Assembly: GCF_009735645.1 (NCBI RefSeq)
Contig: NZ_CP032550.1
Coordinates: forward strand, 2,542,001-2,606,000
Direction: 5' to 3'
Source: Microbacterium oryzae
Lineage (GTDB): Bacteria > Actinomycetota > Actinomycetes > Actinomycetales > Microbacteriaceae
Length of the DNA: 64,000 bases
Shown here one piece after another: positions 15,966-30,012 of the stretch. A program made the translations under genes and the position numbers. The notes beneath the pieces are model-generated. The model saw nothing but the letters and a program-made list of their open reading frames with translations. It searched no databases and was not told where the DNA came from. Within the stretch, counting starts at the first letter, position 1. Each line of letters begins with the position of its first letter.

Positions 15966-16694
15966 ATGACGGAAGCGAAGCTGGATCTCATCGCGAAGCT
16001 GCTCGCGAAGGCCGAGAGCACGACGCCCGAGGAAGCCGAGGCGCTCACCGAGCACGCCGCGCGGCTGATGGTGAAGTACGGCATCGACCAGGCGCGCATC
16101 GACGAGCGGCGTGCGCGCGGCGGGCACCCGCCTGAGGAGATCGTGCAGGAGCGGATGGTCTTCACGGGCGCGTACGCCCGCGACCTCCGTGATCTCGGCG
16201 GGGCCGTCGCGCACGCGGTGGGGACCATCCGACCGCTCCAGGCCGAGCTCGCCGGGGTCGGATCGATCCTCATCCTCGTCGGCTACGCCTCCGACGTGCG
16301 GCAGGCGCAGGTGCTGATCGGAAGCCTCCGCATCCAGGCGATGGTCGCGATGCGCGCCTGGTGGGACGCCGCTCGGGTCGCGTACGAGTGGCACACGGAG
16401 AGCGAGCGGCGTCGTGCGCGCAGCGGGTTCGTCCGCGGCTTCGGCGGAGGCGCGGCCGCAAGGATCGCGGAGAACCGGAACGCCGTCGTCGAGGAGGCCG
16501 GCTCGGGCACCGACCTGGTGCTCGCCTCCCGGCGACAGCGCGTGGACGCGTTCGTCGACGGGATGCCCACCAGGCGCGCGCGGCGTCGCAGCGGGGCGGA
16601 TGCCGGTGCCTACGTCTCGGGACACCGCTCAGGTCGGCAGGCGAACACCGGCGAGGCGGCGATCAGGGAGCGAAGGTCCCTTCCGCAGGGGTGA
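15966..16694 (+). CDS. DUF2786 domain protein
   Basis: 242 residues. The N-terminal LIAKLLAKAESTTPEEAEALTEHAARLMVKYGID is a clear DUF2786 domain, often found in phage-related and actinobacterial proteins of unknown function. The middle has VGSILILVGYASDVRQAQVLIGSLRIQ; the C-terminus is Arg-rich and probably disordered or nucleic-acid binding. GAGGAGGAG upstream gives a strong ribosome binding site. The last 85 bp overlap the convergent cofC gene. Confidence 0.82.
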   Translation: MTEAKLDLIAKLLAKAESTTPEEAEALTEHAARLMVKYGIDQARIDERRARGGHPPEEIVQERMVFTGAYARDLRDLGGAVAHAVGTIRPLQAELAGVGSILILVGYASDVRQAQVLIGSLRIQAMVAMRAWWDAARVAYEWHTESERRRARSGFVRGFGGGAAARIAENRNAVVEEAGSGTDLVLASRRQRVDAFVDGMPTRRARRRSGADAGAYVSGHRSGRQANTGEAAIRERRSLPQG

Positions 16695-17368
16695 GCGAGG
16701 AGCGCGGCCGTGCGCGGTCCGAGCCCGAGGGCCGCGGCCGCGCGGAGCTGCGCGAGCGTGTCGACGTCGCGCCGCAGCGTCGAGCCCGACCCGACGTCCA
16801 GGTCGACGTGCGCGAGGGCGCGGTGCCGTGCGGCCGAGCCCTCGCCGAACGCCGGTTCGAGCGCGACGGCGGGGAGCGCCGTGATGAGCGTCGACCCGGT
16901 GCCCTCGGCGTCGGCGACGAGCCCGCGCGGCACGGCCTCGGCGAGGGCGAGCGCCGCGTCGAGATCGGATGGCCGCAGCGCCGGCAGATCGCCCAGCAGC
17001 ACCGCGCGCGGACGGCGCGGGTCGAGCGTCGCGAGTCCCGCGCGGATGGCCGGCGCGAGACCCCTCGGCGCGCTTTCAGCGACGAAGCGCAGCACCGGAG
17101 ATTCCGCGAGCCCCGGATCCGCCGGCGCCTTCCGGTCCGGCTCACGCGGGATCTCCGGCGCTCGGGCCTCGAGGTCCGGCCAGGGGCCATCCGCCGTCAC
17201 CACGACCACCTCGGCGACGCGCGTCGACCGGGCCACCGCCGCGACGGTGTCGCGGGCGATCGCGCGGGCCAGCGCGACGCGGTCGACGCCGGGCACCGCG
17301 AGGCGCGACTTCCCGACTGCCGCAGGCTTCACGGGGATGACGACGTGCCATCCCGCCGCCGCCGTCAC
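16610..17368 (-). CDS. cofC: 2-phospho-L-lactate / phosphoenolpyruvate guanylyltransferase (CofC/FbiD)
   Basis: 252 residues from a GTG. It activates 2-phospholactate or PEP with GTP to supply the side chain of coenzyme F420-0. WHVVIPVKPAAVGKSRLAVPG (residues 7-27) is the nucleotide-binding signature of this MobA-like fold, followed by EVVVVTADG, GLAPAIRAGLATL and AVLLGDLPALRP. The GTG overlaps the stop of the fgd gene, coupling it to the F420 operon. The product is slightly long; the C-terminal residues overlap the end of the DUF2786 gene on the other strand. Confidence 0.88.
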   Translation of the reverse strand: MTAAAGWHVVIPVKPAAVGKSRLAVPGVDRVALARAIARDTVAAVARSTRVAEVVVVTADGPWPDLEARAPEIPREPDRKAPADPGLAESPVLRFVAESAPRGLAPAIRAGLATLDPRRPRAVLLGDLPALRPSDLDAALALAEAVPRGLVADAEGTGSTLITALPAVALEPAFGEGSAARHRALAHVDLDVGSGSTLRRDVDTLAQLRAAAALGLGPRTAALLAHPCGRDLRSLIAASPVFACRPERCPET

Positions 17369-18378
17369 GCGCCGTATTCGGCGCGCAGCCGCGGCAGGAC
17401 CTCCGTGCCGTACAGACGCAGGAACGCCTCCTGGTCGTGGCCGGGGTCGTGGAACACGAGGTGGCGGAACCCGAGATCGACGTACCCGCGGATGGCGGCG
17501 AGGTGCTCCTCGACGTCGTCCGACACGATGAAGCGCGACGCCGCGCGCTCGATCGGCAGAGCATCGGCGAGGCGCTGCATCTCGCGGGGGTCGTCGACGC
17601 CGGTCTTCTCATCGGGGCTCAGCGCGAGCGGCGCCCAGAAGCGCGTGTTCTCGAGGGCCTGCGCGCGGTCGGGGCGGAACGAGACCTTGACCTCCAGGAG
17701 GGTGTCGACGTCGTCGCGGGTGCGCCCGGCCTTCGCGAGCCCCTCCTCGAACGCGGGCAGGAGCTTGTCGGCGTAGAGCGCGGGGTCCTTGCCGCTCGTG
17801 GTGATGTATCCGTCGGCCATGCGGCCGGCGAGGCGGGTGGCGGCGGGCCCGGAGGCGCCGATGTAGATCGGCACGAGCTGGTCGGAGCGGTCGTAGATGG
17901 TCGCGTTCTGCACCGAGTAGTACGTGCCGTCGAAGGTGACGCGCTCGTCGGTCCACAGACGGCGGATGAGGGTGATGGCCTCCTTCATCCGCTGGAAGCG
18001 CTCGGGCGGCTCCGGCCATTCGAGCCCGAGCGTCACCTCGTTGAGCGCTTCGCCCGTGCCCACGCCGAGGATCATGCGCCCGGGGTGCATGGCGCCGAGC
18101 GTCGCGAACGCCTGCGCGACGACGCCCGGGTGATAGCGGAAGGTGGGCGTCAGCACCGACGTGCCCAGCAGCACGCGCGACGTGCGCTCGGCCGCCGCGC
18201 CGAGCCACGGAAGCGCGGCCGGAGCGTGACCGCCGTCGTGCCGCCAGGGCTGCAGGTGGTCGCTGAGGAAGACCGAGTCGAAGCCGACCTCCTCGGCGAG
18301 GACCGCGAAGTCCAGCAGCTCGCGCGGGCCGAACTGCTCCGACGATGCCTTGTATCCGAACCGGAACGGGATGGTCAT
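17365..18378 (-). CDS. fgd: F420-dependent glucose-6-phosphate dehydrogenase
   Basis: 337 residues, nearly identical in length to mycobacterial Fgd1 (336). It oxidises glucose-6-phosphate to 6-phosphogluconolactone and provides reduced F420H2. The active-site segment FLSDHLQPWRHDGGHAP has the His and Trp equivalent to His40 and Trp44 of Fgd1, and VGTGEALNE carries the catalytic Glu near 109. TTSGKDPALY and ASRFIVSDDVEEH hold candidate phosphate-binding Lys and Arg. The start ATG overlaps the upstream flavoprotein stop and its stop overlaps cofC. Confidence 0.92.
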   Translation of the reverse strand: MTIPFRFGYKASSEQFGPRELLDFAVLAEEVGFDSVFLSDHLQPWRHDGGHAPAALPWLGAAAERTSRVLLGTSVLTPTFRYHPGVVAQAFATLGAMHPGRMILGVGTGEALNEVTLGLEWPEPPERFQRMKEAITLIRRLWTDERVTFDGTYYSVQNATIYDRSDQLVPIYIGASGPAATRLAGRMADGYITTSGKDPALYADKLLPAFEEGLAKAGRTRDDVDTLLEVKVSFRPDRAQALENTRFWAPLALSPDEKTGVDDPREMQRLADALPIERAASRFIVSDDVEEHLAAIRGYVDLGFRHLVFHDPGHDQEAFLRLYGTEVLPRLRAEYGA

Positions 18379-19964
18379 GGCTGGGCTCCTTCGTGCACGA
18401 GCGCGGGCAGGGGATCGAGTTCGCGGGCGACGCGGGCGAGGCGCTCGCGGAAGGCCGCGACGGTGCCGGGCCAGAGGAGGGTGAGGCGGCCGCTCCGGGC
18501 GTCGACGTACCAGTTGTCGCAGCCGCCGGCGATCCACGGCGTGCGGGCCGAGCGCTCCACGATCTCGCGCGTGTAGGCGGCCTCGGCCTCCGCGGTCACC
18601 CGCACGTCGCGCCCGCCGAGGATGCGCGCGGCGGTGAACGCGGCCTGCTCCTCGAGGATGAGGACGGCGGAGCTGTGCCCGAGAGCGGCATTCGGGCCGC
18701 CGAGGATGAAGAGATTCGGGAAGCCGTGCACGAGCGTCGACCCGACCGAGGTCATTCCGTCGGCCCAGTGCTCGTCGAGCGTCCGCCCGTGCTCGCCGGT
18801 CACGAGCGGCGCATACGGCTGCCGAGTCGAGGCGAAGCCCGTCGCGAGGACCACGACGTCGGCGGCGTGACGCGTTCCGTCGGCCGCGATCAGCTCGTCG
18901 CCCTCGACGGCCGCGAGAGCGGATGGCACGAGTCGGACCGCGGGCGAGGCGACGGCCGGGTAGAACGCATCGCTCAGCAGCACGCGCTTGCAGCCGAAGG
19001 CGTAGTCGGGGGTGAGTGCGTCGCGCAGCGCGGGATCGGAGACCTGCGTGGCGAGATGCGCGCGCGCCACTGCCTCCGCGGCGGCAGCGGCCGCCGCATC
19101 GCCGGACCGGGAGGCGAAGCGCGCCTCGCCCTCGGCGTGCAGCTCGTCGCGGAGGCGTGCCGCCGCCGCCGGGTCGTGCAGCGCGTCGATCTCCTGCGGC
19201 GTGTACGCGCGATCGCCCTTGGGCACGATCCAGGCGGGGGTCCGCTGGAACAGCGTGACCTCCGCGCCCGCCTGGACGAGGGCGGGCACGAGCTGGACCG
19301 CGCTCGCGCCGGTGCCGACGACGGCGACGCGGCGCCCGGCGACGTCCGCGTCGTGGTTCCACCGTGCCGAGTGGAAGATCGGGCCCGGGAACGCCTCCAG
19401 GCCGGGCACCTCGGGGATCCGAGGCTCCGTCAGCCGCCCGCACGCGAGGATCAGGTGCCGCGCGCGAACCACCGCGGGACAGTTCGCAGGAGATCGACTG
19501 CCCTCGACGCCGAGAGACCGCTTCCCGGCAGCCCCGGCGCCTGGATCTCCTGCGGTGTGTCCGGCTCGGACTTCGATGATCCAGCCCTCGCCATCCCACC
19601 GTGCCCCGGCGAGCGCGGTCTTCAGCCGCAGCTGCCGGTCGAGGCCCTCGTCGCGGACGACGCCCTCGAGGTAGGCGCGGATCTCGGCGCCCGGAGCGAA
19701 GACGCGCGACCATGCGGGCGACGGATGGCCGGAGAGCGCGTAGAGGTGGGAGGGCACGTCGCACGCGACGCCGGGATAGGTGTTGTCGCGCCAGGTGCCG
19801 CCGACCGACGCGCCGCGTTCCAGCATCACGAAGTCGTCGTCTCCCGCCGCACGCAGGGCGAGCGCGGCCGCGATCCCCGCGAACCCGGCGCCGACGATGA
19901 CGGTGCCGACCTCGCCCGTGCCGACCTCGCCCGTGCCGGTCGCGCCTCCGCCGGTCGTGGTCAT
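18375..19964 (-). CDS. flavin-containing monooxygenase (Baeyer-Villiger type)
   Basis: 529 residues. There are two Rossmann motifs, VIVGAGFAGIAAAL (FAD, about residue 22) and VAVVGTGASAVQLVPAL (NADPH). Between them FPGPIFHSARWNHD fits the Baeyer-Villiger fingerprint FxGxxxHxxxW. GGTWRDNTYPGVACDVPSHLY is the usual flavin-pocket segment. Class B monooxygenases use FAD and NADPH to oxygenate ketones or heteroatoms; the substrate is unknown. Two oddities: the N-terminus contains a 15-bp tandem repeat (19903-19939, peptide GEVGTGEVGT), and residues 137-160 are an insertion that coincides with a palindromic DNA element. It is coupled by 4-nt overlaps to fbiC and fgd. Confidence 0.88.
   Translation of the reverse strand: MTTTGGGATGTGEVGTGEVGTVIVGAGFAGIAAALALRAAGDDDFVMLERGASVGGTWRDNTYPGVACDVPSHLYALSGHPSPAWSRVFAPGAEIRAYLEGVVRDEGLDRQLRLKTALAGARWDGEGWIIEVRAGHTAGDPGAGAAGKRSLGVEGSRSPANCPAVVRARHLILACGRLTEPRIPEVPGLEAFPGPIFHSARWNHDADVAGRRVAVVGTGASAVQLVPALVQAGAEVTLFQRTPAWIVPKGDRAYTPQEIDALHDPAAAARLRDELHAEGEARFASRSGDAAAAAAAEAVARAHLATQVSDPALRDALTPDYAFGCKRVLLSDAFYPAVASPAVRLVPSALAAVEGDELIAADGTRHAADVVVLATGFASTRQPYAPLVTGEHGRTLDEHWADGMTSVGSTLVHGFPNLFILGGPNAALGHSSAVLILEEQAAFTAARILGGRDVRVTAEAEAAYTREIVERSARTPWIAGGCDNWYVDARSGRLTLLWPGTVAAFRERLARVARELDPLPALVHEGAQP
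19485..19554. repeat. 70-bp palindromic element inside the monooxygenase gene
   Basis: Perfect 11-bp inverted repeat CGCAGGAGATC (19485-19495) / GATCTCCTGCG (19544-19554) with a 48-bp spacer, located in codons for residues 137-160, a Gly/Ser/Arg loop just before VRARHLILACG where relatives are usually shorter. Length and layout resemble the element in hemG, but the arm sequence differs. Confidence 0.5.
19903..19939. repeat. 15-bp tandem repeat, about 2.5 copies
   Basis: GTGCCGACCTCGCCC occurs twice in direct succession followed by a partial third copy, encoding the N-terminal TGTGEVGTGEVGT of the monooxygenase. Typical of replication slippage in a tolerant region. Confidence 0.7.
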
Positions 19965-22324
19965 CCGTCGCCCCGCGGGACGTCGCCGTACGTCGTCGTC
20001 CGCTGCCGGAAGGGCCGGAAGAGCCGTCGCGCGATGCCGCGCGCGGTCTCCACGGGCAGCTCCAGGCCCGTCTCGACGCCCGCGCGGGGGCCGACCCGGC
20101 CATCCCGCAGCGTGCCGCCGAGGTCGTCGCCGCCCGCGCGCAGGAGATCGGCGGAGAGCTCGAGACCGTGCCGCGTCCACGGGATCTGCACGTGCGGGAT
20201 GGCGCCCGACAGCATGAGGCGCGCGACCGCGACCATCGCGCGGTGCTCGTCCGCCGGGCTGCGGCCCGCGACGAGCGGCACGCCCCAGCCGGGCATCGGA
20301 ATCGGCACGAACTCCGTGAAGCCGCCCGTCTCGGCCTGGATCGCGAGCAGCCTCCGCAGGTGCGCGACCCGCTCCGCCGCCGTCTCGACGTGCCCGTAGA
20401 ACAGCACCGACGTCGAGCGGAACCCGGCCCGATGCGCGGCGGTGATCGTCTCGATCCAGCGGTCGACCTCGAGGTCGCCCGGCGCGACCTCTCGGCGCAC
20501 CCGCTCGCTCAGCACCTTCACGCCCGTGCCCGGCACGGTGTCGACGCCCGCCTCGCGCAGCGCCGCCAGCGCGCCCGCGAGTCCGAGGCCGGTGCGGTCG
20601 GCGAGGTCGGCGACGTCCTGCGGACGGAACGCGTGCAGATGGATGGCCGGGGCCGCGCGCTTCACGGCTCGCGCGATGTCGAGGTAGGCGTCGGGCGCCT
20701 CGGACGGCGCCACCACGCCCTGCACGCAGATCTCGGTGAGGCCGAGGTCCACGGCATCTCGCGCCATGGCCTCGAGGAGGGCGAGGTCGTACTCGTCGTC
20801 CGCGCTCCCGCCCGCGGCTCGAAATCCGGTGCCGGCGATGTTCCGGTTCGCCACGACGCTGACGGTCTCGCCGACGGTGTACCGGCGCACGTCGTCCGCG
20901 GTCTGCGCGAGCGCGTCGAGCTCGTCGCCGGTGGCCGCCAGCAGCCGCTCCCACTCGGCGTCGTCGAGCGACGCGGGATCCTGTGCGGCGCGCTCGATGA
21001 CCGCCGCGATGAGACCGCCGGGTGCCGACAGGGTGACGCCCGGGTCGACGGCGGGAACCGCGGCCGCCCCGGAAGGCGCCCGTCCCTCGGGGCGCAGCAC
21101 CGCGCCATCCGCCCCGTGCCGCGCGAGCCCGTCGTCGCCGGCGAGGGCCCGCGTCGCATCGCGGATGGCCGGGTCGAGCCACGCGTCGTCGCGCACGTAC
21201 TCCGGGTGCGCGGTGAGGCGCTCGCGGAGGGTGAAGCCGAGGTCTGCCGTCCGCGCGGCGAGGTCGTCGACGTGCGGCCAGGGGCGCTCGGGGTTCACGT
21301 GATCGGCGGTGAGCGGCGAGACGCCGCCCCAGTCGTCGGCGCCCGCGCGCAGCAGCAGCGCGAACTCCTGCGGGTCGGAGAGGTTCGGGGGCACCTGCAC
21401 GCGCATGCGCGGGCCGAGCACGAGGCGCGTGACGGCGACCGCCGACGCGTGCTCGTGCAGCGCGGCGTCGGGGGCGTCCTGCATCGCGGTCCGCGGCTTG
21501 GCGCGGAAGTTCTGGACGATGACCTCCTGGATGTGCCCGTGCCGGTCGTGCGCATCGCGCAGCGCGATCATCGACTCGGCGCGGTCGCGGAGGCTCTCGC
21601 CGATCCCCACGAGGATGCCCGACGTGAACGGGATGCGCGCGCGGCCCGCGTTCTCGAGCAGCTCGAGCCGCACCGCCGGGTCCTTGTCGGGCGAGAGGTG
21701 GTGCACGCGGCCGGGCTCGGTGAAGAGCGTGCGCGAGGTCGTCTCCAGCATGACGCCCATCGACGGGGCGGATGGTCGCAGCGCGGCGAGCTCGTCCGGT
21801 CTCATCACACCGGGGTTGAGATGGGGGAGGAGCCCGGTCTCGTCGACGATGAGCCGCGCCATCGCGCCGACGTACTCGAGAGTGGAGGCGTAGCCGTGGA
21901 CATCGAGCCATGCGCGGGCCTCGGGCCAGCGGTCCTCCGGCCGGTCGCCGAGCGTGAGGAGCGCCTCCTTGCAGCCGAGCGCCTGCCCCTGCCGTGCGAC
22001 GGCGAGCACCTGCTCCGGCGACATGTACGCGGGCTTGGCCTTCTTGAGGAGCTGGTTCGGAGTGTCCACGAAGACGCAGTAGTGGCACCGATCGCGGCAC
22101 AGGGTGGTCAGCGGGATGAACACCTTGCGCGAGTAGGTGATGACGCCGGGGCGCCCGGCGAGGGCGAGCCCCTCGTCCCGCGTGCGGGCGGCGAGATCGA
22201 GCACGCGCTCCCGGTCGGGGCCGTCGGCCTCGAGGAGCGCGAGCGCGTCGTCGACGTTCAGCCGCTCGCCAGCCTCGGCGCGCTGCAGGGCGGACTCGAC
22301 GGCGGTCGCGCTGAGCAGGGTCAC
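19961..22324 (-). CDS. fbiC: FbiC-type FO synthase (CofG-CofH fusion) with degenerate CofH half
   Basis: 787 residues. FbiC normally joins two radical-SAM domains that make FO, the deazaflavin core of F420, from tyrosine and 5-amino-6-ribitylaminouracil. The CofG half is intact: CRDRCHYC gives Cys76, Cys80 and Cys83, with VFIPLTTLCRD before it. The CofH half aligns well (NRNI at about 493, EICVQG, IHLHAFRPQD, FYGHVETAAERVAHLR, TGGFTEFVPIP, RQRTTTYGDVP), but the CxxxCxxC segment expected after NRNI is replaced by a shorter AGTGFRAAGGSADDEYDL without cysteine. The GTG at 22324 is chosen because GAGACT lies 6 nt upstream and the start at 22387 would overlap the divergent gene; ATG 22387 is an alternative. 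It is first in the fbiC-monooxygenase-fgd-cofC unit. Confidence 0.88.
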   Translation of the reverse strand: MTLLSATAVESALQRAEAGERLNVDDALALLEADGPDRERVLDLAARTRDEGLALAGRPGVITYSRKVFIPLTTLCRDRCHYCVFVDTPNQLLKKAKPAYMSPEQVLAVARQGQALGCKEALLTLGDRPEDRWPEARAWLDVHGYASTLEYVGAMARLIVDETGLLPHLNPGVMRPDELAALRPSAPSMGVMLETTSRTLFTEPGRVHHLSPDKDPAVRLELLENAGRARIPFTSGILVGIGESLRDRAESMIALRDAHDRHGHIQEVIVQNFRAKPRTAMQDAPDAALHEHASAVAVTRLVLGPRMRVQVPPNLSDPQEFALLLRAGADDWGGVSPLTADHVNPERPWPHVDDLAARTADLGFTLRERLTAHPEYVRDDAWLDPAIRDATRALAGDDGLARHGADGAVLRPEGRAPSGAAAVPAVDPGVTLSAPGGLIAAVIERAAQDPASLDDAEWERLLAATGDELDALAQTADDVRRYTVGETVSVVANRNIAGTGFRAAGGSADDEYDLALLEAMARDAVDLGLTEICVQGVVAPSEAPDAYLDIARAVKRAAPAIHLHAFRPQDVADLADRTGLGLAGALAALREAGVDTVPGTGVKVLSERVRREVAPGDLEVDRWIETITAAHRAGFRSTSVLFYGHVETAAERVAHLRRLLAIQAETGGFTEFVPIPMPGWGVPLVAGRSPADEHRAMVAVARLMLSGAIPHVQIPWTRHGLELSADLLRAGGDDLGGTLRDGRVGPRAGVETGLELPVETARGIARRLFRPFRQRTTTYGDVPRGDG

Positions 22325-22385
22325 CGCCCCAGTCTCGCACCGCGAGGGCCCCCGGGCGCGGCGCGGCGCTGGCAGGATGGTCGTC

Positions 22386-22829
22386 ATGGTGACGCTGCTC
22401 CTCGATCACGCGCAGCTCGAGATCGGGCTCTCGCCCCTCGAACGCGCCCTCGCCTTCCGTCGGGAGAGCATCCGCATCGCGCGCGCATCGATCGCGAAGG
22501 TCCAGCTGACCGGCGATCCGTGGACCTGGCTCCGCGGCGCGCGCGCTCGCGGGACGCTCGTCCCCGGCACCGTCGCGCTCGGCACGTGGCGCCTGGCCGA
22601 CGGCGACGACTTCGTCGCGGTCCGCGGGCGGCGCCTGCCGGGCGTCGTCATCGACCTGGATGGCACGGGCGAGTTCCAGCGTCTCGTGCTGTCGACGCGG
22701 CACGGCCTCGCGCTCACGCGCGCGCTGCGCCTCGACCTCGATGCGGCCGCCGAAGCGGTGGAGCTCGGGACTCAGTCCCTCAAGACGCCGCAGCCCGCAC
22801 CGCGGCCGGTGCCCCGCCCCGCGATCTGA
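22386..22829 (+). CDS. conserved hypothetical protein, PH-like
   Basis: 147 residues. IARASIAKVQLTGDPWTWLRGAR, GTVALGTWRLADGDDFVAVRGRRLPGVVIDL and RLVLSTRHG look like the strand-rich pattern of small bacterial PH-like domains, but I cannot name the family with certainty. The C-terminus is Pro-rich. CAGGAT lies 7 nt before the ATG. It stands alone between the F420 operon and the importer; its last 50 bp overlap the convergent ATPase gene. Confidence 0.7.
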   Translation: MVTLLLDHAQLEIGLSPLERALAFRRESIRIARASIAKVQLTGDPWTWLRGARARGTLVPGTVALGTWRLADGDDFVAVRGRRLPGVVIDLDGTGEFQRLVLSTRHGLALTRALRLDLDAAAEAVELGTQSLKTPQPAPRPVPRPAI

Positions 22830-23592
22830 GCGCTCCGGGACGGAATGCCACAAGGAGGCCTCCCGCCTCGTCGCACACGACATCGGCGCGCACGCCGTAC
22901 ACCTGGGCGATGAGCTCGGAGGTGAGAACATCGGCCGGGGCGCCGCCCGCGACCACCCGCCCGCGGTCGAGCACGACGAGATGATCGCAGAACATCGCCG
23001 CGAGATTGAGATCATGAAGGGCGATGACGGCGGTGACCGGGAGGTCGGCGATCAGGCGCAGGATCTCGAGCTGATGGCGGATGTCGAGGTGGTTCGTGGG
23101 CTCGTCGAGGAGGATCTCCCGGGGCTCCTGCGCGAGGGCCCGGGCGATCTGCGCCCTCTGGCGCTCGCCGCCGGAGAGGGTGTGCCAGAGACGGTCCGCC
23201 TTGCCCGCGAGCCCCGCGTGCCGCAGCGCGGCTTCCACCGCGCGGTCGTCGGCGGCGCTGTCGAGCCCGAACGGCGAGCGGTAAGGCGTCCGGCCCAGGC
23301 GCACCACGTCGCGGACGACAAGGTCGACGTCGGTGTCCGCATGCTGCGTGACGGTCGCGACGGTGCGGGCGAGGTCGCGACGGCGCAGCGTTCTGAGGTC
23401 TGCGCCGTCCAGGAGCACGGTGCCGGATTCGGGTCGCGCCACACCCTGCAGGAGGCGCAGGAGCGAGGACTTGCCGGAGCCGTTCGGCCCGAGCAGCCCG
23501 ACGGTGTCTCCCGGCTGTGGATGGAGGGTGACCTCGTCCACGACGAGCACGCCGCCGCGTCGCCACGAGACCCGATCCGCCTGCAGCGTCAT
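22780..23592 (-). CDS. FecE/HmuV-type ABC transporter ATP-binding protein
   Basis: 270 residues. Walker A GPNGSGKSS, signature LSGGERQRAQIARALAQ, Walker B ILLDEPTNHLD and the switch His in IALHDLNLAAMFCDH are all present, so the ATPase is complete. Sequence style (TLRRRDLARTVATVTQHAD) is that of the iron-siderophore/haem/cobalamin importer class. It is coupled to the permease gene by a 4-nt overlap and powers the transporter encoded by the next two genes. Confidence 0.93.
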   Translation of the reverse strand: MTLQADRVSWRRGGVLVVDEVTLHPQPGDTVGLLGPNGSGKSSLLRLLQGVARPESGTVLLDGADLRTLRRRDLARTVATVTQHADTDVDLVVRDVVRLGRTPYRSPFGLDSAADDRAVEAALRHAGLAGKADRLWHTLSGGERQRAQIARALAQEPREILLDEPTNHLDIRHQLEILRLIADLPVTAVIALHDLNLAAMFCDHLVVLDRGRVVAGGAPADVLTSELIAQVYGVRADVVCDEAGGLLVAFRPGALRSRGGAPAAVRAAAS

Positions 23593-24698
23593 GCGCGACC
23601 CCGCTGCCGGACGAGGAGCAGCACGAAGACGGGGACGCCGACGATCGCCGTCGCGACGCCCACGGGGAGGGGCGTGGGCGCGAAGGCGACGCGAGCGGCC
23701 GCGTCCACCCACACCATGAACACGGCGCCGAGGACGACCGTGGCCGGCAGCACCCGCGAGTGGCGCTGGCCGACGAGCATGCGGGAGGCGTGCGGCAGCA
23801 CCAGGCCGACGAACCCGATCGCGCCCGCGACGCTCACGAGCGTCGCGGTGAGGAGCGCGGTGAGGGTGAGCAGCAGGAAGCGGGTGCGCGCGACGTGGAT
23901 GCCGAGCGACGCGGCCACATCCTCGCCGAAGGCAAACGCGTCGAGCGACCGGGCGGAGCCGAGGCCGAGGGCTGTCCCCGCGACCACGACGGCCGCGCAG
24001 AGGGCCACATCGTCCCAGCGCATGCCCTCGAGCGAGCCGAGCAGCCAGAACATCACGCCGCGCGTCTCGTCGGAGTCGGCGAACGCGAAGATCACCAGCG
24101 ACGTGAGGGCGCTGAAGAGCTGCGTCCCGGCGACGCCGGCGAGGATGATGCCGGAGGTGCCGCCGCTGGTGTACCGAGCCAGCACCACCACGAGGCCGAA
24201 GGCGATCAGGGCACCCGCGAACGCACCGCCCGAGAGCCCGAGTGCTCCGCCGGAGACGCCGAGCACGCCGACGAGCACGGCACCGGTGGAGGCGCCCGAG
24301 GACACTCCCAGCACATAGGGGTCCGACAGCGGGTTGCGCGTCAGCGACTGCAGGATCGCGCCGCACAGTCCGAGCCCGGCGCCAGATGCGGCGGCGACGA
24401 GCGCACGGGGCAGGCGCTCCTCCCACACGATCGCGTCCTCCGACACCCGCACGGGGGTCTGCGCGAGACCGAGGTGGTTGAGCAGGATGTCGCGCACATT
24501 CACGAGAGACACATCCGCGGGGCCGAGGGTCACGGCGACTCCGACCGAGAGCAGCAGCGCCAGCGCGCCGGCCGCGATGAGCGCGAGACCCAGCGCGAGA
24601 CGGGCAGGAGTCGAGCGGCGGCGGGGAGCCGGAGTCTCGACCGGCGTCGTGGTGGCCTCGGAGCGCTCGGTGTGCTCGATCGTCACCGACACCGTCAT
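23589..24698 (-). CDS. FecCD-family ABC transporter permease
   Basis: 369 residues with a roughly 35-residue cytoplasmic N-terminus and about ten membrane helices. RLPRALVAAASGAGLGLCGAILQ and QSLTRNPLSDPYVLGVSSGA are the defining FecCD/BtuC segments, and GAIGFVGLVLPHASRMLVG contains the ATPase-contacting loop. One permease gene is present, so it probably works as a homodimer. Genes for the binding protein and ATPase flank it with 4-nt overlaps. Confidence 0.94.
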   Translation of the reverse strand: MTVSVTIEHTERSEATTTPVETPAPRRRSTPARLALGLALIAAGALALLLSVGVAVTLGPADVSLVNVRDILLNHLGLAQTPVRVSEDAIVWEERLPRALVAAASGAGLGLCGAILQSLTRNPLSDPYVLGVSSGASTGAVLVGVLGVSGGALGLSGGAFAGALIAFGLVVVLARYTSGGTSGIILAGVAGTQLFSALTSLVIFAFADSDETRGVMFWLLGSLEGMRWDDVALCAAVVVAGTALGLGSARSLDAFAFGEDVAASLGIHVARTRFLLLTLTALLTATLVSVAGAIGFVGLVLPHASRMLVGQRHSRVLPATVVLGAVFMVWVDAAARVAFAPTPLPVGVATAIVGVPVFVLLLVRQRGRA

Positions 24699-25747
24699 CC
24701 CTCGCCCTCGTCCTGGTGCTCGAGCGCCCAGGTACGGATCTTCTCCAGCGCGTCGACGAAGCGGATGGACGGATTCATCTCTGCCCCGTGCAGTGCGATG
24801 AAGTCCGCTCGCTGCACCGCGCTGAGGGTCCGGGTGAGCGGATCGGCCGTGAGGAAGGCGATCTTGTCGTCCAGGCGGTCGCCGGGGAACCGGTCGCGCT
24901 GCAGGTCGCCGAGCACGAGGATGCTCGGGTCGGCGTCGACGACGCTCTCCCAGCCCACCGCGGGCCAGTCATCGGCGGTGTCGGCGAACACGTTGGTCAT
25001 GCCGGTCAGCTCCGCCAGCAGCGACGCGGAGCCGAACCCGCCCGCGGTGTACGGCGTCTTCGTGTCGGCGAACCAGAACACCGCGCTCCGCCCGCCGAGG
25101 TCGACGCCCTCCGTCGCGGCAGTCGCGCGCTCCTGGAGGTCGGCGATGAGCGCCGCCCCTCGGTCGGCGACGTCGAAGATGTCGGCGAGCTCCTGGATCT
25201 CCTGGTAGAGCGCCTCCACCTGCAGCGGCTCCGTGCGGGTGCCGCCGCCGTTGACGCTGATCCCGTTGTCGCAGTCGGTCGGGGACAGGTACGAGCCGAC
25301 GCTCGTCTCAGCGAGACGATCGCGCGTCACCACGCCGCCCTCGTTGTAGTGACGACCGAACGACGCGGTCACGAAGTCCGGATCCGCCCCGAGCACGACC
25401 TCGTAGGTGGGCGCGTTGTCGGACAGACGCGGCACGCCCTCGTTCTCGTCGGCGAGCGACGGGAGGATCGGATCCGTCCAGGACGCGGTTCCCACGATGC
25501 GGCCGGCGAGGCCGAGCGAGAGGAGGATCTCCGTCGAGTTCTGGTCGAGTGACACGACACGCTGCGGCGCGCGCTCGATCTCGACTGTCTGGCCGCAGTT
25601 CTCGATGACAAGCGGATACCGCGTGTCACCCTGTCCGACGGCGTCCGCGGAGTCCTCGACCACCTCCGACGCTCCGCAGCCCGTCAGGGCGACGAGGGTC
25701 ACGAGGGACGCCGAGGCGGCGATCGCGCGCAGGCGAGTGAAGATCAC
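24695..25747 (-). CDS. FecB-type substrate-binding lipoprotein (siderophore/haem-like importer)
   Basis: 350 residues. The lipobox ALTGC (Cys24) marks an exported lipoprotein. APQRVVSLDQNSTEILLSLGLAGRIVGT and a C-terminal partner domain give the two-lobed TroA/FecB fold. GTG 25747 is the start because AAGGAG lies 6 nt upstream. A DtxR/IdeR-like box about 60 bp upstream suggests iron repression and therefore an iron-chelate or haem ligand. The nearby F420 genes raise the alternative of the proposed F420-0 importer family, but the signature I remember for that family is not evident, so I rank it second. Confidence 0.85.
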   Translation of the reverse strand: MIFTRLRAIAASASLVTLVALTGCGASEVVEDSADAVGQGDTRYPLVIENCGQTVEIERAPQRVVSLDQNSTEILLSLGLAGRIVGTASWTDPILPSLADENEGVPRLSDNAPTYEVVLGADPDFVTASFGRHYNEGGVVTRDRLAETSVGSYLSPTDCDNGISVNGGGTRTEPLQVEALYQEIQELADIFDVADRGAALIADLQERATAATEGVDLGGRSAVFWFADTKTPYTAGGFGSASLLAELTGMTNVFADTADDWPAVGWESVVDADPSILVLGDLQRDRFPGDRLDDKIAFLTADPLTRTLSAVQRADFIALHGAEMNPSIRFVDALEKIRTWALEHQDEGEG

Positions 25748-28075: not shown

Positions 28076-29182
28076 GTGATCGACACCGCCGCGCCCACCC
28101 GAGTCCGCTCGATGATGCGCGGCGGGGTCGGACGCCTCACGCTCGACCGCCCCGAGAGCATCAACGCGCTGACGCAGGAGATGCTCGAGACGGTCGGCGA
28201 GACCCTCGACGGATGGCGCGCGGAGCCGGATGTCTCGATCGTCCTGCTGCAGGGAGCGGGGGAGCGCGGGTTCAGCGCGGGCGGCGACATCCGCGACCTC
28301 CACGCGCGCATCACGGCGGGCGGCGAAGCGGCGGCGGACTCCTTCTTCCGCGTCGAGTACCGGGTCGACGCTGCGGTGGCGGAGTACCCCAAGCCGGTCG
28401 TCGCGATCGCCGACGGCGTCACCATGGGCGGCGGCATCGGCCTGGCGGGCAACGCGCACGTGCGCATCGTCACGGAGCGCTCACGACTCGCGATGCCGGA
28501 GACCCGCATCGGGTTCTCGCCCGACGCGGGCGGCTCGTGGCTGCTCGCGCACGCGCCAGGGCGCCTCGGCGAGTACCTCGCCCTCACGAGCGACACGATG
28601 GACGCGGCCGACGCCATCCACTGCCGCTTCGCGGACCACTTCGTGCCGCACGACAGCATCGAGTCGGTCGTCGACGCGCTCGAGATGCGCGCCGATCCGT
28701 CGAGCCCCACCGAGCTCGTCATGCTCTTCGACGAGACGCCGCCCGCCGGGCCCATCCAGCGCGCGCAGCCGTGGATCGATCACGCGTTCGCCGCCGACAC
28801 CGTCCTGGAGATCCGCCACCGGCTCGAGCAGCTCGTCGCCTCCGGCATCGGCGCGGGGGAGGAGCGCACCCCCGCCTCGGCGCTCGCCGCCCTCGACGAG
28901 CGCTCGCCCACCGCGCTCGTCGTGAGCCTCGCGGCCATCCGCTCGGCTCGCGCGCTGCCGTCGCTGCGGCACGCGCTCGAGCAGGAGTACCACCTCATGT
29001 CGTGGTACCTCCGCACGCAGCCCGACATGGCGGAGGGGATCCGCGCCCAGGTCATCGACAAGGACCGGCAGCCGCGGTGGCAGCCCGCCACCGTGGCCGA
29101 GGTTCCGGACGACACCGTGGGGCGGGCCTTCGCGCATCGCGCCGCACGGCCGCTGTTCTCCGAGACGGAAGGACGATCATGA
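28076..29182 (+). CDS. 3-hydroxyisobutyryl-CoA hydrolase (enoyl-CoA hydratase/isomerase family)
   Basis: 368 residues. The crotonase core shows GERGFSAGGDIRDLHAR (oxyanion-hole strand), DGVTMGGGIGLAGNAHVRIVTERSRLAMPETRIGFSPDAGG and a long C-terminal helical part with HLMSWYLRTQPDMAEGIRAQ. MPETxIGxxPDxGG is the mark of the HIBYL-CoA hydrolase branch, which acts in valine catabolism. The GTG has no ribosome binding site but TAACGT lies 7 nt upstream, so the message is probably leaderless. Its stop overlaps the following luciferase-like gene (ATGA). Confidence 0.9.
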   Translation: MIDTAAPTRVRSMMRGGVGRLTLDRPESINALTQEMLETVGETLDGWRAEPDVSIVLLQGAGERGFSAGGDIRDLHARITAGGEAAADSFFRVEYRVDAAVAEYPKPVVAIADGVTMGGGIGLAGNAHVRIVTERSRLAMPETRIGFSPDAGGSWLLAHAPGRLGEYLALTSDTMDAADAIHCRFADHFVPHDSIESVVDALEMRADPSSPTELVMLFDETPPAGPIQRAQPWIDHAFAADTVLEIRHRLEQLVASGIGAGEERTPASALAALDERSPTALVVSLAAIRSARALPSLRHALEQEYHLMSWYLRTQPDMAEGIRAQVIDKDRQPRWQPATVAEVPDDTVGRAFAHRAARPLFSETEGRS

Positions 29183-30012
29183 CGCAGAAGTCGGATCTCG
29201 GCGCCTGGGGCGTCTGGCGGTCGGCGGGTCAGGCGGATGGCGGCTTCGCCCGTCGCGTGGAGGAGCTCGGCTACCGCACGCTGTGGGTGGGCGGCTCGCC
29301 CGCCGCCGACCTCGTCATCGTCGAGGAGCTGCTCGACGCCACGGCGGACCTGGTCGTCGCGACCGGCATCGTCAACATCTGGCAGGCCGACGCCCCGAGC
29401 GTCGCGCAGGCCTTCCATCGCATCGAGGACTCCCATCCCGGGCGGCTGGTGCTCGGCATCGGGTCGGGCCACCGGGAGGCGACGCCCGAGCGCGTGAAGC
29501 CGCTCGCCGCGCTCGGCTCCTACCTCGACGTGCTGGACGCGGAGGGCGTGCGTCAGGACCAGCGCCTGCTCGCCGCACTCGGCGATCGCACCCTCGCGCT
29601 CGCCGCGGAGCGCACACTCGGCGCTCACCCGTACCTCACGCTCCCGCCGCACACCGCGCACGCGCGGACGCTCCTCGGCGACGCGCTGCTCGCGCCCGAG
29701 GTGACGGTCTCGCTCGGGTCGGATGGCGATGGTGCGCGCGACGTCGCCCGTGCGTTCTGGGGGCGATACTCCCGCCTGTCGAACTACGTCGGCGCGCTGG
29801 AGCGCTTCGGCGCGACGGCCGAGGACCTGGCCGACGGCGGGTCGGATGAGCTCCTCGACCGCCTCATCGCCGGTCCCGACGCCGAGCGTGCGACCGCGGC
29901 CATCCGCTCGCATCTCGACGCGGGAGCCGACCACGTCGCCGTGCAGGCGCTCGGCGACGATCCGCTCGGGTCGCTCGAGCGCATCGCGGAGGGACTCGGC
30001 GTCTCCCGCTGA
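29179..30012 (+). CDS. LLM-class F420-dependent oxidoreductase
   Basis: 277 residues. GAWGVWRSAGQADGGFARRVEELGYRTLWVGG, ATGIVNIWQADAPSVAQAFHRI and GRLVLGIGSGHREATPE are the TIM-barrel segments of a subfamily of probable F420-dependent oxidoreductases (the TIGR03620-like group, from memory). The substrate is unknown. With the fragment at 1-343 and fgd this makes at least three luciferase-like genes in the window, which fits an F420-using organism. It is translationally coupled to the hydrolase gene. Confidence 0.85.
   Translation: MTQKSDLGAWGVWRSAGQADGGFARRVEELGYRTLWVGGSPAADLVIVEELLDATADLVVATGIVNIWQADAPSVAQAFHRIEDSHPGRLVLGIGSGHREATPERVKPLAALGSYLDVLDAEGVRQDQRLLAALGDRTLALAAERTLGAHPYLTLPPHTAHARTLLGDALLAPEVTVSLGSDGDGARDVARAFWGRYSRLSNYVGALERFGATAEDLADGGSDELLDRLIAGPDAERATAAIRSHLDAGADHVAVQALGDDPLGSLERIAEGLGVSR

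What the first reader, a model, noticed from the sequence alone, without database searches (positions are those of the whole stretch)
20700..20900. FbiC whose CofH half has lost the radical-SAM cysteine cluster
Seen: after the conserved NRNI of the CofH domain (about residue 493), where FbiC proteins have a CxxxCxxC-containing segment, this protein reads AGTGFRAAGGSADDEYDL with no cysteine and is about 9 residues shorter. The rest of the domain (EICVQG, HAFRPQD, FYGHVETAAERVAHLR, TGGFTEFVPIP, RQRTTTYGDVP) is well conserved and the frame is open. The CofG half keeps Cys76/80/83. Known: both halves need a 4Fe-4S cluster to make FO. Inference: the CofH half is catalytically dead but kept as a scaffold, or has a new role, with a separate CofH or an imported precursor completing FO; the gene still heads a coupled fgd/cofC operon, so it is unlikely to be a decaying pseudogene.
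Basis: partly seen in the sequence, partly recalled or inferred. Interest (0 to 1): 0.82.

Follow-up and report, generated by a model that had tools for sequence, protein, structure and literature searches.

The report
Clusterless CofH paired with a monooxygenase
Some bacteria that carry the genes for the redox cofactor F420 have a version of a key enzyme that has lost its iron-sulfur centre and is encoded beside an oxygen-using flavin enzyme, which suggests an unrecognised oxygen-dependent way of making the cofactor's core.

Summary
FbiC at 19961-22387(-) keeps the CofG cysteines (C97/C101/C104); its CofH half lacks CxxxCxxC, has one cysteine (C554) and falls below the CofH cut-off. It is neither error nor decay: 120 of 120 listed homologues share the loss, and the half is under purifying selection. 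It lies in 133 of 134 clusterless-CofH loci (119 of 120 without known repeats; the exception is a contig end) and in 0 of 124 intact-CofH loci scanned. Of 149 Microbacterium genomes the same 76 have both; all 76 have a CofD hit (75 over its cut-off). No CofH over the cut-off was found in these 149 or in 54 other clusterless genomes. In 18 loci the clusterless CofH is a separate gene, still beside the BVMO. Best reading: the pair replaces the radical-SAM CofH step of FO synthesis with an O2-dependent reaction; a 4-hydroxybenzyl ester/quinone-methide route is proposed, untested. None of ten searches of open-licence papers listed a description.

The parts
19961..22387 (-). fbiC variant, 808 aa (787 aa from the start at 22324): CofG half plus clusterless CofH half
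   Evidence: NF006687 (CofGH) 925.3 bits, below its cut-off of 1018
21158..22315 (-). CofG half (residues 25-410), radical-SAM motif intact
   Evidence: TIGR03550 466.6 bits, over cut-off 213.35; C97/C101/C104 at 22076-22099; 138 of 179 intact-invariant columns kept
19979..21025 (-). clusterless CofH half (residues 455-803), MqnE-like TIM barrel without a Fe-S motif
20783..20836 (-). segment in place of the CxxxCxxC loop (AGTGFRAAGGSADDEYDL)
20717..20734 (-). EICVQG: E552, C554, Q556 and G557 kept, the next glycine lost
18375..19964 (-). type I BVMO-like FAD/NAD(P)H monooxygenase gene, 4-nt ATGA overlap with the fbiC stop
   Evidence: PDB relatives: cyclohexanone, steroid and phenylacetone monooxygenases; FPGPIFHSARW motif and conserved R in GCKR; overlap
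17365..18378 (-). [quoted passage not shown]
   Evidence: TIGR03554 451.2 bits, over cut-off 420; overlap
16610..17368 (-). cofC, 4-nt GTGA overlap with fgd (exact start not tested)
   Evidence: TIGR03552 113.5 bits, over cut-off 105; overlap

Best explanation
The CofH half belongs to a distinct clusterless CofH family (CofH*). CofH* and the adjacent BVMO-type flavoenzyme are one functional unit that replaces the radical-SAM CofH step, so that FO is still made and passed through the ordinary CofG, CofC/CofD and CofE steps to F420. Shown here: the loss, its position on one side of one branch, purifying selection, the near-perfect CofH*-BVMO pairing, the lack of any CofH over the family cut-off, and the presence of the F420 genes. 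Inferred: that the pair makes the CofG substrate. Proposed chemistry (my inference): the BVMO inserts oxygen next to the carbonyl of a tyrosine-derived 4-hydroxyphenyl-CH2-C(=O)-R compound, such as 4-hydroxyphenylpyruvate or 4-hydroxyphenylacetaldehyde. That gives a 4-hydroxybenzyl ester, which loses its acyl group to form a p-quinone methide. CofH*, keeping the old barrel, holds 5-amino-6-ribitylaminouracil so that its C5 attacks the quinone methide, giving the same 5-(4-hydroxybenzyl) adduct that CofH makes by radical chemistry. I put about 0.6 on the replacement and about 0.25 on this particular chemistry.
For: (1) Pairing: first set, BVMO in 109 of 110 CofH* loci (95 of 96 distinct; L135 has only 142 bp downstream) and in 0 of 92 intact loci; order-wide set, 23 of 23 CofH* and 0 of 32 intact; one more CofH* locus, L327. 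(2) The linked BVMOs are a family of their own: 59 linked rows lie on one side of a branch (SH-aLRT 100) against 8 BVMOs found elsewhere in genomes, four of them from intact-CofH genomes. (3) Genus: 76 of 149 genomes have FbiC at E<=1e-20 and the same 76 have the BVMO at E<=1e-60; adjacent and co-directional in 75 of 76, the other a contig break. (4) Contrast inside Microbacteriaceae: 21 intact loci have no BVMO in the stretch held, and in GTDB genera g12, g17 and g77 some species have intact FbiC and others CofH*+BVMO, as expected of interchangeable systems. (5) CofH* is a separate gene in 17 order-wide loci and in L327, where the order is cofH*-BVMO-cofG, so its constant partner is the BVMO rather than the fusion to CofG. 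(6) No substitute: 0 of 149 and 0 of 54 genomes have CofH over the cut-off; three intact control proteins pass it. (7) Demand for FO: all 76 FbiC genomes have a CofD hit, 75 over the cut-off; the own genome has CofD, CofE, CofC and Fgd. (8) Selection: dN/dS against M. barkeri 0.119 for CofH*, 0.126 for CofG. (9) In the CofH tree 79 CofH* rows are on one side of a branch, SH-aLRT 100; 62 positions are at least 95% conserved in them, three of which (R588, E668, G763) replace residues 100% conserved in the 44 intact rows. (10) Nearest known chemistry: phenylacetone monooxygenase turns phenylacetone into benzyl acetate (PMC3404926, passages seen).
Against: No experiment; I found no report of F420 production by a CofH* organism in the papers listed or read. 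Adjacency and co-occurrence do not show a reaction. Six of 149 genus genomes have CofD but neither FbiC nor this BVMO, so F420 genes can persist without the pair. Four of 21 intact genomes have a 40-47% similar BVMO elsewhere, though outside the linked family. The linked BVMO evolves no more closely with CofH* than with CofG (partial r 0.375 and 0.367, 44 loci). In two more distant pairs dN/dS is higher for CofH* than for CofG (0.280 vs 0.245, 0.347 vs 0.233). With alpha-keto acids a flavin peroxide often causes oxidative decarboxylation instead of a Baeyer-Villiger shift (recalled), which counts against 4-hydroxyphenylpyruvate as the substrate.
Confidence: 0.6

Rival explanations
1. The CofG half has taken over both radical steps; CofH* is a scaffold or substrate-holding domain and the BVMO has some other F420-related job.
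For: CofG keeps its cluster motif in 49 of 49 CofH* proteins examined and most invariant residues.
Against: CofH* is a separate gene in 18 loci, next to the BVMO. The CofG half shows no column switched to another conserved residue (0 of 179), so it bears no mark of a new duty. The BVMO association would be unexplained.
Confidence: 0.12
2. CofH*+BVMO make a different molecule: a modified or alternative deazaflavin precursor that CofG cyclises into an F420 variant.
For: 145 of 207 positions invariant in intact CofH are not kept in CofH*, so its substrates may differ.
Against: CofC, CofD, CofE and Fgd of the ordinary pathway score over their family cut-offs in the own genome, and congeners swap intact FbiC for the CofH*+BVMO form.
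Confidence: 0.13
3. The CofH half is functionally dead and FO or F420-0 is imported; FbiC survives only for the CofG half.
For: A FecCD-type ABC transporter upstream (22780-25747) resembles the putative F420-0 importer models; six genus genomes have CofD without FbiC.
Against: All three transporter hits are below their cut-offs, and my gene clustering placed these genes beside fbiC only in the window among 70 neighbourhoods. CofH* is under purifying selection and exists as a separate gene. CofG works on the CofH product, so import of FO would leave CofG idle (inference).
Confidence: 0.08
4. A second, unrelated enzyme makes the adduct, and CofH*/BVMO serve another pathway that happens to be linked.
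For: Only relatives of CofH were searched for; an unrelated replacement would not be seen.
Against: Besides fbiC, the BVMO is the one gene family found in nearly all 49 CofH* neighbourhoods (48 by gene calls, the 49th, L169, by tblastn) and in none of 21 intact ones.
Confidence: 0.06
5. Sequencing or assembly artefact.
For: None.
Against: 120 of 120 listed homologues share it, from many genomes and sources; the frame is open.
Confidence: 0.01

Closest known systems
FbiC / CofGH, bifunctional FO synthase
   Same: Domain order, close CofG half (68.9% mean identity to intact Microbacteriaceae), F420 gene setting
   Different: CofH half without the Fe-S loop or the second glycine of QGG, 44.8% mean identity, BVMO neighbour, NF006687 below cut-off
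CofH (5-amino-6-ribitylaminouracil--L-tyrosine 4-hydroxyphenyl transferase)
   Same: TIM-barrel fold; 62 of 207 intact-invariant positions kept
   Different: No CxxxCxxC (0 of 79 rows against 44 of 44); below the TIGR03551 cut-off
MqnE (aminofutalosine synthase), PDB 6XIG/6XI9
   Different: MqnE is a radical-SAM enzyme of menaquinone synthesis (recalled)
Type I BVMOs (cyclohexanone, steroid and phenylacetone monooxygenases)
   Same: Sequence similarity over most of the length, nucleotide-binding motifs, FxGxxxHxxxW, the Arg of the KR motif
   Different: A separate linked family, genetically tied to CofH*; substrate unknown

Membership tests
Radical SAM superfamily (CofG half) | CxxxCxxC cluster motif | tested here: met
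   C97/C101/C104; 49 of 49 CofH* proteins examined
Radical SAM superfamily (CofH half) | CxxxCxxC or another set of cysteines able to hold a 4Fe-4S cluster | tested here: not met
   Single cysteine C554; 45 of 49 examined have one cysteine in this half, and no other column is conserved as cysteine
CofH (TIGR03551) | Score over the curated cut-off of 374.1 bits | tested here: not met
   306.8 bits; three intact controls 554-569
FbiC/CofGH (NF006687) | Score over the curated cut-off of 1018 bits | tested here: not met
   925.3 bits; three intact controls 1457-1471
CofG (TIGR03550) | Score over the curated cut-off of 213.35 bits | tested here: met
   466.6 bits
Type I Baeyer-Villiger monooxygenase | FxGxxxHxxxW motif (recalled as the core of the family fingerprint; the P/D recalled after W is N here) | tested here: met
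   FPGPIFHSARWN in the window; core motif in 46 of 48 called family members, the window included
Type I Baeyer-Villiger monooxygenase | Catalytic arginine of the KR motif (role recalled) | tested here: met
   GCKR aligned with GAKR and YAKR of solved BVMOs; R at least 95% conserved in the linked family
Type I Baeyer-Villiger monooxygenase | Oxygen insertion next to a carbonyl | not testable with these tools
   Needs an assay
[quoted passage not shown]
   451.2 bits
Putative F420-0 ABC importer (TIGR03868/03869/03873) | Scores over the curated cut-offs | tested here: not met
   192.7 of 392.4, 328.9 of 437.35, 329.1 of 372.4 bits

The most novel reading that the evidence does not exclude
Actinomycetota have a second, oxygen-dependent route to FO. 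A flavin monooxygenase creates a tyrosine-derived 4-hydroxybenzyl electrophile, and a former radical-SAM protein that lost its Fe-S cluster has become its polar condensing partner, joining it to 5-amino-6-ribitylaminouracil. Radical chemistry at a C-C bond forming step would thus have been replaced by polar flavin chemistry on the inherited scaffold.
Probability: 0.45. Interest if true: 0.95.

Novelty: new variant of a known kind. Interest (0 to 1): 0.88.

Why it matters
A 2021 review states that in all studied F420 producers FO is made by a universal mechanism with two radical-SAM domains (PMC8498797, passages seen). If these bacteria make F420, that is not universal. The case would be a record of a radical-SAM fold re-used without its cluster, and it would offer an FO synthase whose first step does not need an oxygen-sensitive cluster, useful for making F420 in aerobic hosts. 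It also warns that database labels such as 'FO synthase' on stand-alone CofH* proteins hide a different enzyme. The prediction can be tested directly with two genes.

Tried and rejected
Stand-alone CofH elsewhere: none over the cut-off, and a single FbiC locus in the own genome. A second cluster ligated elsewhere in the half: rejected, one cysteine only. Pseudogene: rejected by dN/dS (that script stopped with a division error at the sixth locus, L199, so only the pairs printed before it are used: L002 and L003 with their repeats L082 and L083, and L085). Type-II switches: a Microbacterium-heavy set of 158 clusterless and 71 intact proteins shows many columns changed to another conserved residue, but the family-wide set of 49 and 44 shows only four; I rely on the latter. 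Mirror-tree: no preference of the BVMO for CofH* over CofG. The BVMOs of four intact genomes as members of the linked family: rejected by a tree. Importer: below cut-offs. Literature: ten searches, seen as listings of titles and abstract starts, some capped (20 of 45, 30 of 87, 15 of 23), listed no paper describing this; passages were seen in six papers. Only open-licence PMC papers are held. The VIA-align list is filled mostly by CofG-half matches, so folds absent from it mean nothing.

Limits of counts: 8 of the 92 first-set intact loci have under 1500 bp downstream. Repeats were removed inside the first set only; repeats between sets were not tested. Of the 60 order-wide loci, 4 had no CofH part (L261, L289, L292, L293) and one (L290) was a fragment 74% like intact CofH without BVMO; these 5 are outside the 23 and 32. 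In L256 the CofH* hit is split between frames. Of 30 phylum-wide loci 27 carry the intact motif (L300 with NFSN), 2 are Microbacterium loci already seen and 1 is CofH*; the 27 have short flanks and were not scanned for the BVMO. In the genus the motif was read only in the loci held; for the rest I rely on scores below the cut-off. G078 has two FbiC and two BVMO; one pair was used. The CofH tree uses a hand-picked part of the 120 stand-alone hits (17) and of the order-wide loci (12), plus L327, and at least one protein is in it twice (P0121 and L237); it is a quick tree with long branches. The homologue lists are the best 120 of 7998 and of 1586. Gene calls outside the window come from my own simple caller. 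Tree rows with internal stops in my reading or a frame change between pieces were left out.

Full report
FbiC occupies 19961-22387 on the minus strand and is open throughout. The CofG half keeps C97, C101 and C104. Where intact CofH has NFTNxCYxGCRFCAFAQR the window reads AGTGFRAAGGSADDEYDL (20783-20836). The CofH half holds one cysteine. It scores 306.8 bits against TIGR03551, cut-off 374.1, while three intact actinobacterial FbiC proteins score 554-569. The missing loop is not all: of 207 columns invariant in 44 intact proteins, 62 are kept in 49 clusterless ones; in the CofG half 138 of 179 are kept.

The decisive feature lies next door. In the window four genes overlap by 4 nt each: fbiC, a flavoprotein monooxygenase, fgd and cofC. 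The monooxygenase is related over most of its length to cyclohexanone, steroid and phenylacetone monooxygenases, carries the BVMO core motif (46 of 48 called family members) and the arginine of the KR motif. In the first set of loci it is present with 109 of 110 CofH* genes and 0 of 92 intact ones; the exception ends 142 bp after fbiC. Without repeats that is 95 of 96. In the order-wide set it is present with 23 of 23 CofH* and 0 of 32 intact. One further locus from the phylum-wide search, L327, has it too. In total 133 of 134, or 119 of 120 without the known repeats, against 0 of 124.

Whole genomes agree. Of 149 Microbacterium genomes 76 have FbiC, exactly the 76 that have this BVMO at E<=1e-60. 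The genes are adjacent and co-directional in 75, the last being a contig break. None of the 149 has a CofH over the cut-off, nor does any of 54 CofH* genomes of other genera. CofD, which acts on FO, has a hit in all 76 (75 over the cut-off, G131 a partial hit) and in six genomes without FbiC. The own genome also has CofC, CofE and Fgd.

Two natural experiments separate the possibilities. First, Microbacteriaceae contain both forms; in GTDB genera g12, g17 and g77 some species have intact FbiC without BVMO in the stretch held and others CofH*+BVMO, as if the two were interchangeable. Seventeen of 21 intact genomes have no BVMO above 200 bits anywhere; four have one of 40-47% identity elsewhere. 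Since linked BVMOs of distant genera are no more alike than that, I tested them: in a tree the 59 linked rows lie on one side of a branch (SH-aLRT 100) and the eight BVMOs from elsewhere on the other, so the linked BVMO is a family of its own. Second, in 17 order-wide loci CofH* is a separate gene next to the BVMO; CofG is on the opposite strand in 15 of them and on another contig in 2. In L237 CofH* and BVMO overlap by 4 nt; in L327 the order is cofH*, BVMO, cofG. Named database relatives of the stand-alone form are from Kineococcus, Actinomycetospora, Actinoplanes missouriensis and others; 120 of 120 listed lack the motif. So CofH* is tied to the BVMO, not to its fusion with CofG.

The simplest account is that CofH* and the BVMO together do what CofH does. 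A chemically sensible way is as follows. Phenylacetone monooxygenase makes benzyl acetate from phenylacetone (PMC3404926, passages). The same shift on a 4-hydroxyphenyl-CH2-carbonyl compound would give a 4-hydroxybenzyl ester, which readily yields a p-quinone methide (my knowledge of chemistry). Attack by C5 of 5-amino-6-ribitylaminouracil gives the adduct that CofG uses. In eight of 49 CofH* neighbourhoods an alpha/beta-hydrolase gene lies between fbiC and the BVMO (L177 fits PF00561/PF12697), and L255 has fbiC, hydrolase and BVMO overlapping. An esterase beside an ester-forming enzyme would fit, but most loci lack it. Other chemistries, such as oxidation of the diaminouracil itself, are not excluded.

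What is not shown: no activity was measured, no F420 measurement in a CofH* species was found, and the substrate is a guess. The 2021 review calls the two-radical-SAM mechanism universal among studied producers (PMC8498797, passages), and the ten paper searches listed nothing on this variant; only open-licence papers are held, and some listings were capped.

Noticed in passing
window 22780-25747 (-): FecCD-type ABC importer genes upstream of fbiC resemble the putative F420-0 transporter models but fall below all three cut-offs; my clustering found them beside fbiC only in the window among 70 neighbourhoods.
   Followed up: partly
genomes G002, G060, G065, G076, G115, G126: Six Microbacterium genomes have CofD over its cut-off but neither FbiC nor the BVMO: possible FO importers or relics.
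   Followed up: no
L164, L177, L183, L184, L185, L192, L194, L195; L255: An alpha/beta-hydrolase gene sits between fbiC and the BVMO; in L191 a 671-aa BVMO reading frame begins with a stretch that looks hydrolase-like (not searched).
   Followed up: partly
window 22398-22829 (+): Small protein without a Pfam or NCBIfam match, divergent from fbiC; its family was called beside fbiC in 34 of 40 neighbourhoods.
   Followed up: partly
P0121-P0240: Stand-alone CofH* proteins are named 'FO synthase' or 'CofH subfamily radical SAM' by several sources although they have no cluster motif.
   Followed up: yes
L010 (CAJCHX010000732.1): A contig labelled Acidobacteriaceae MAG carries CofH*+BVMO genes and groups with Promicromonospora in the CofG tree; probably mis-binned.
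   Followed up: no
window 29179-30012 (+): A second LLM-class F420-dependent oxidoreductase (TIGR03620, 290 bits over cut-off 219.8) lies near by.
   Followed up: no
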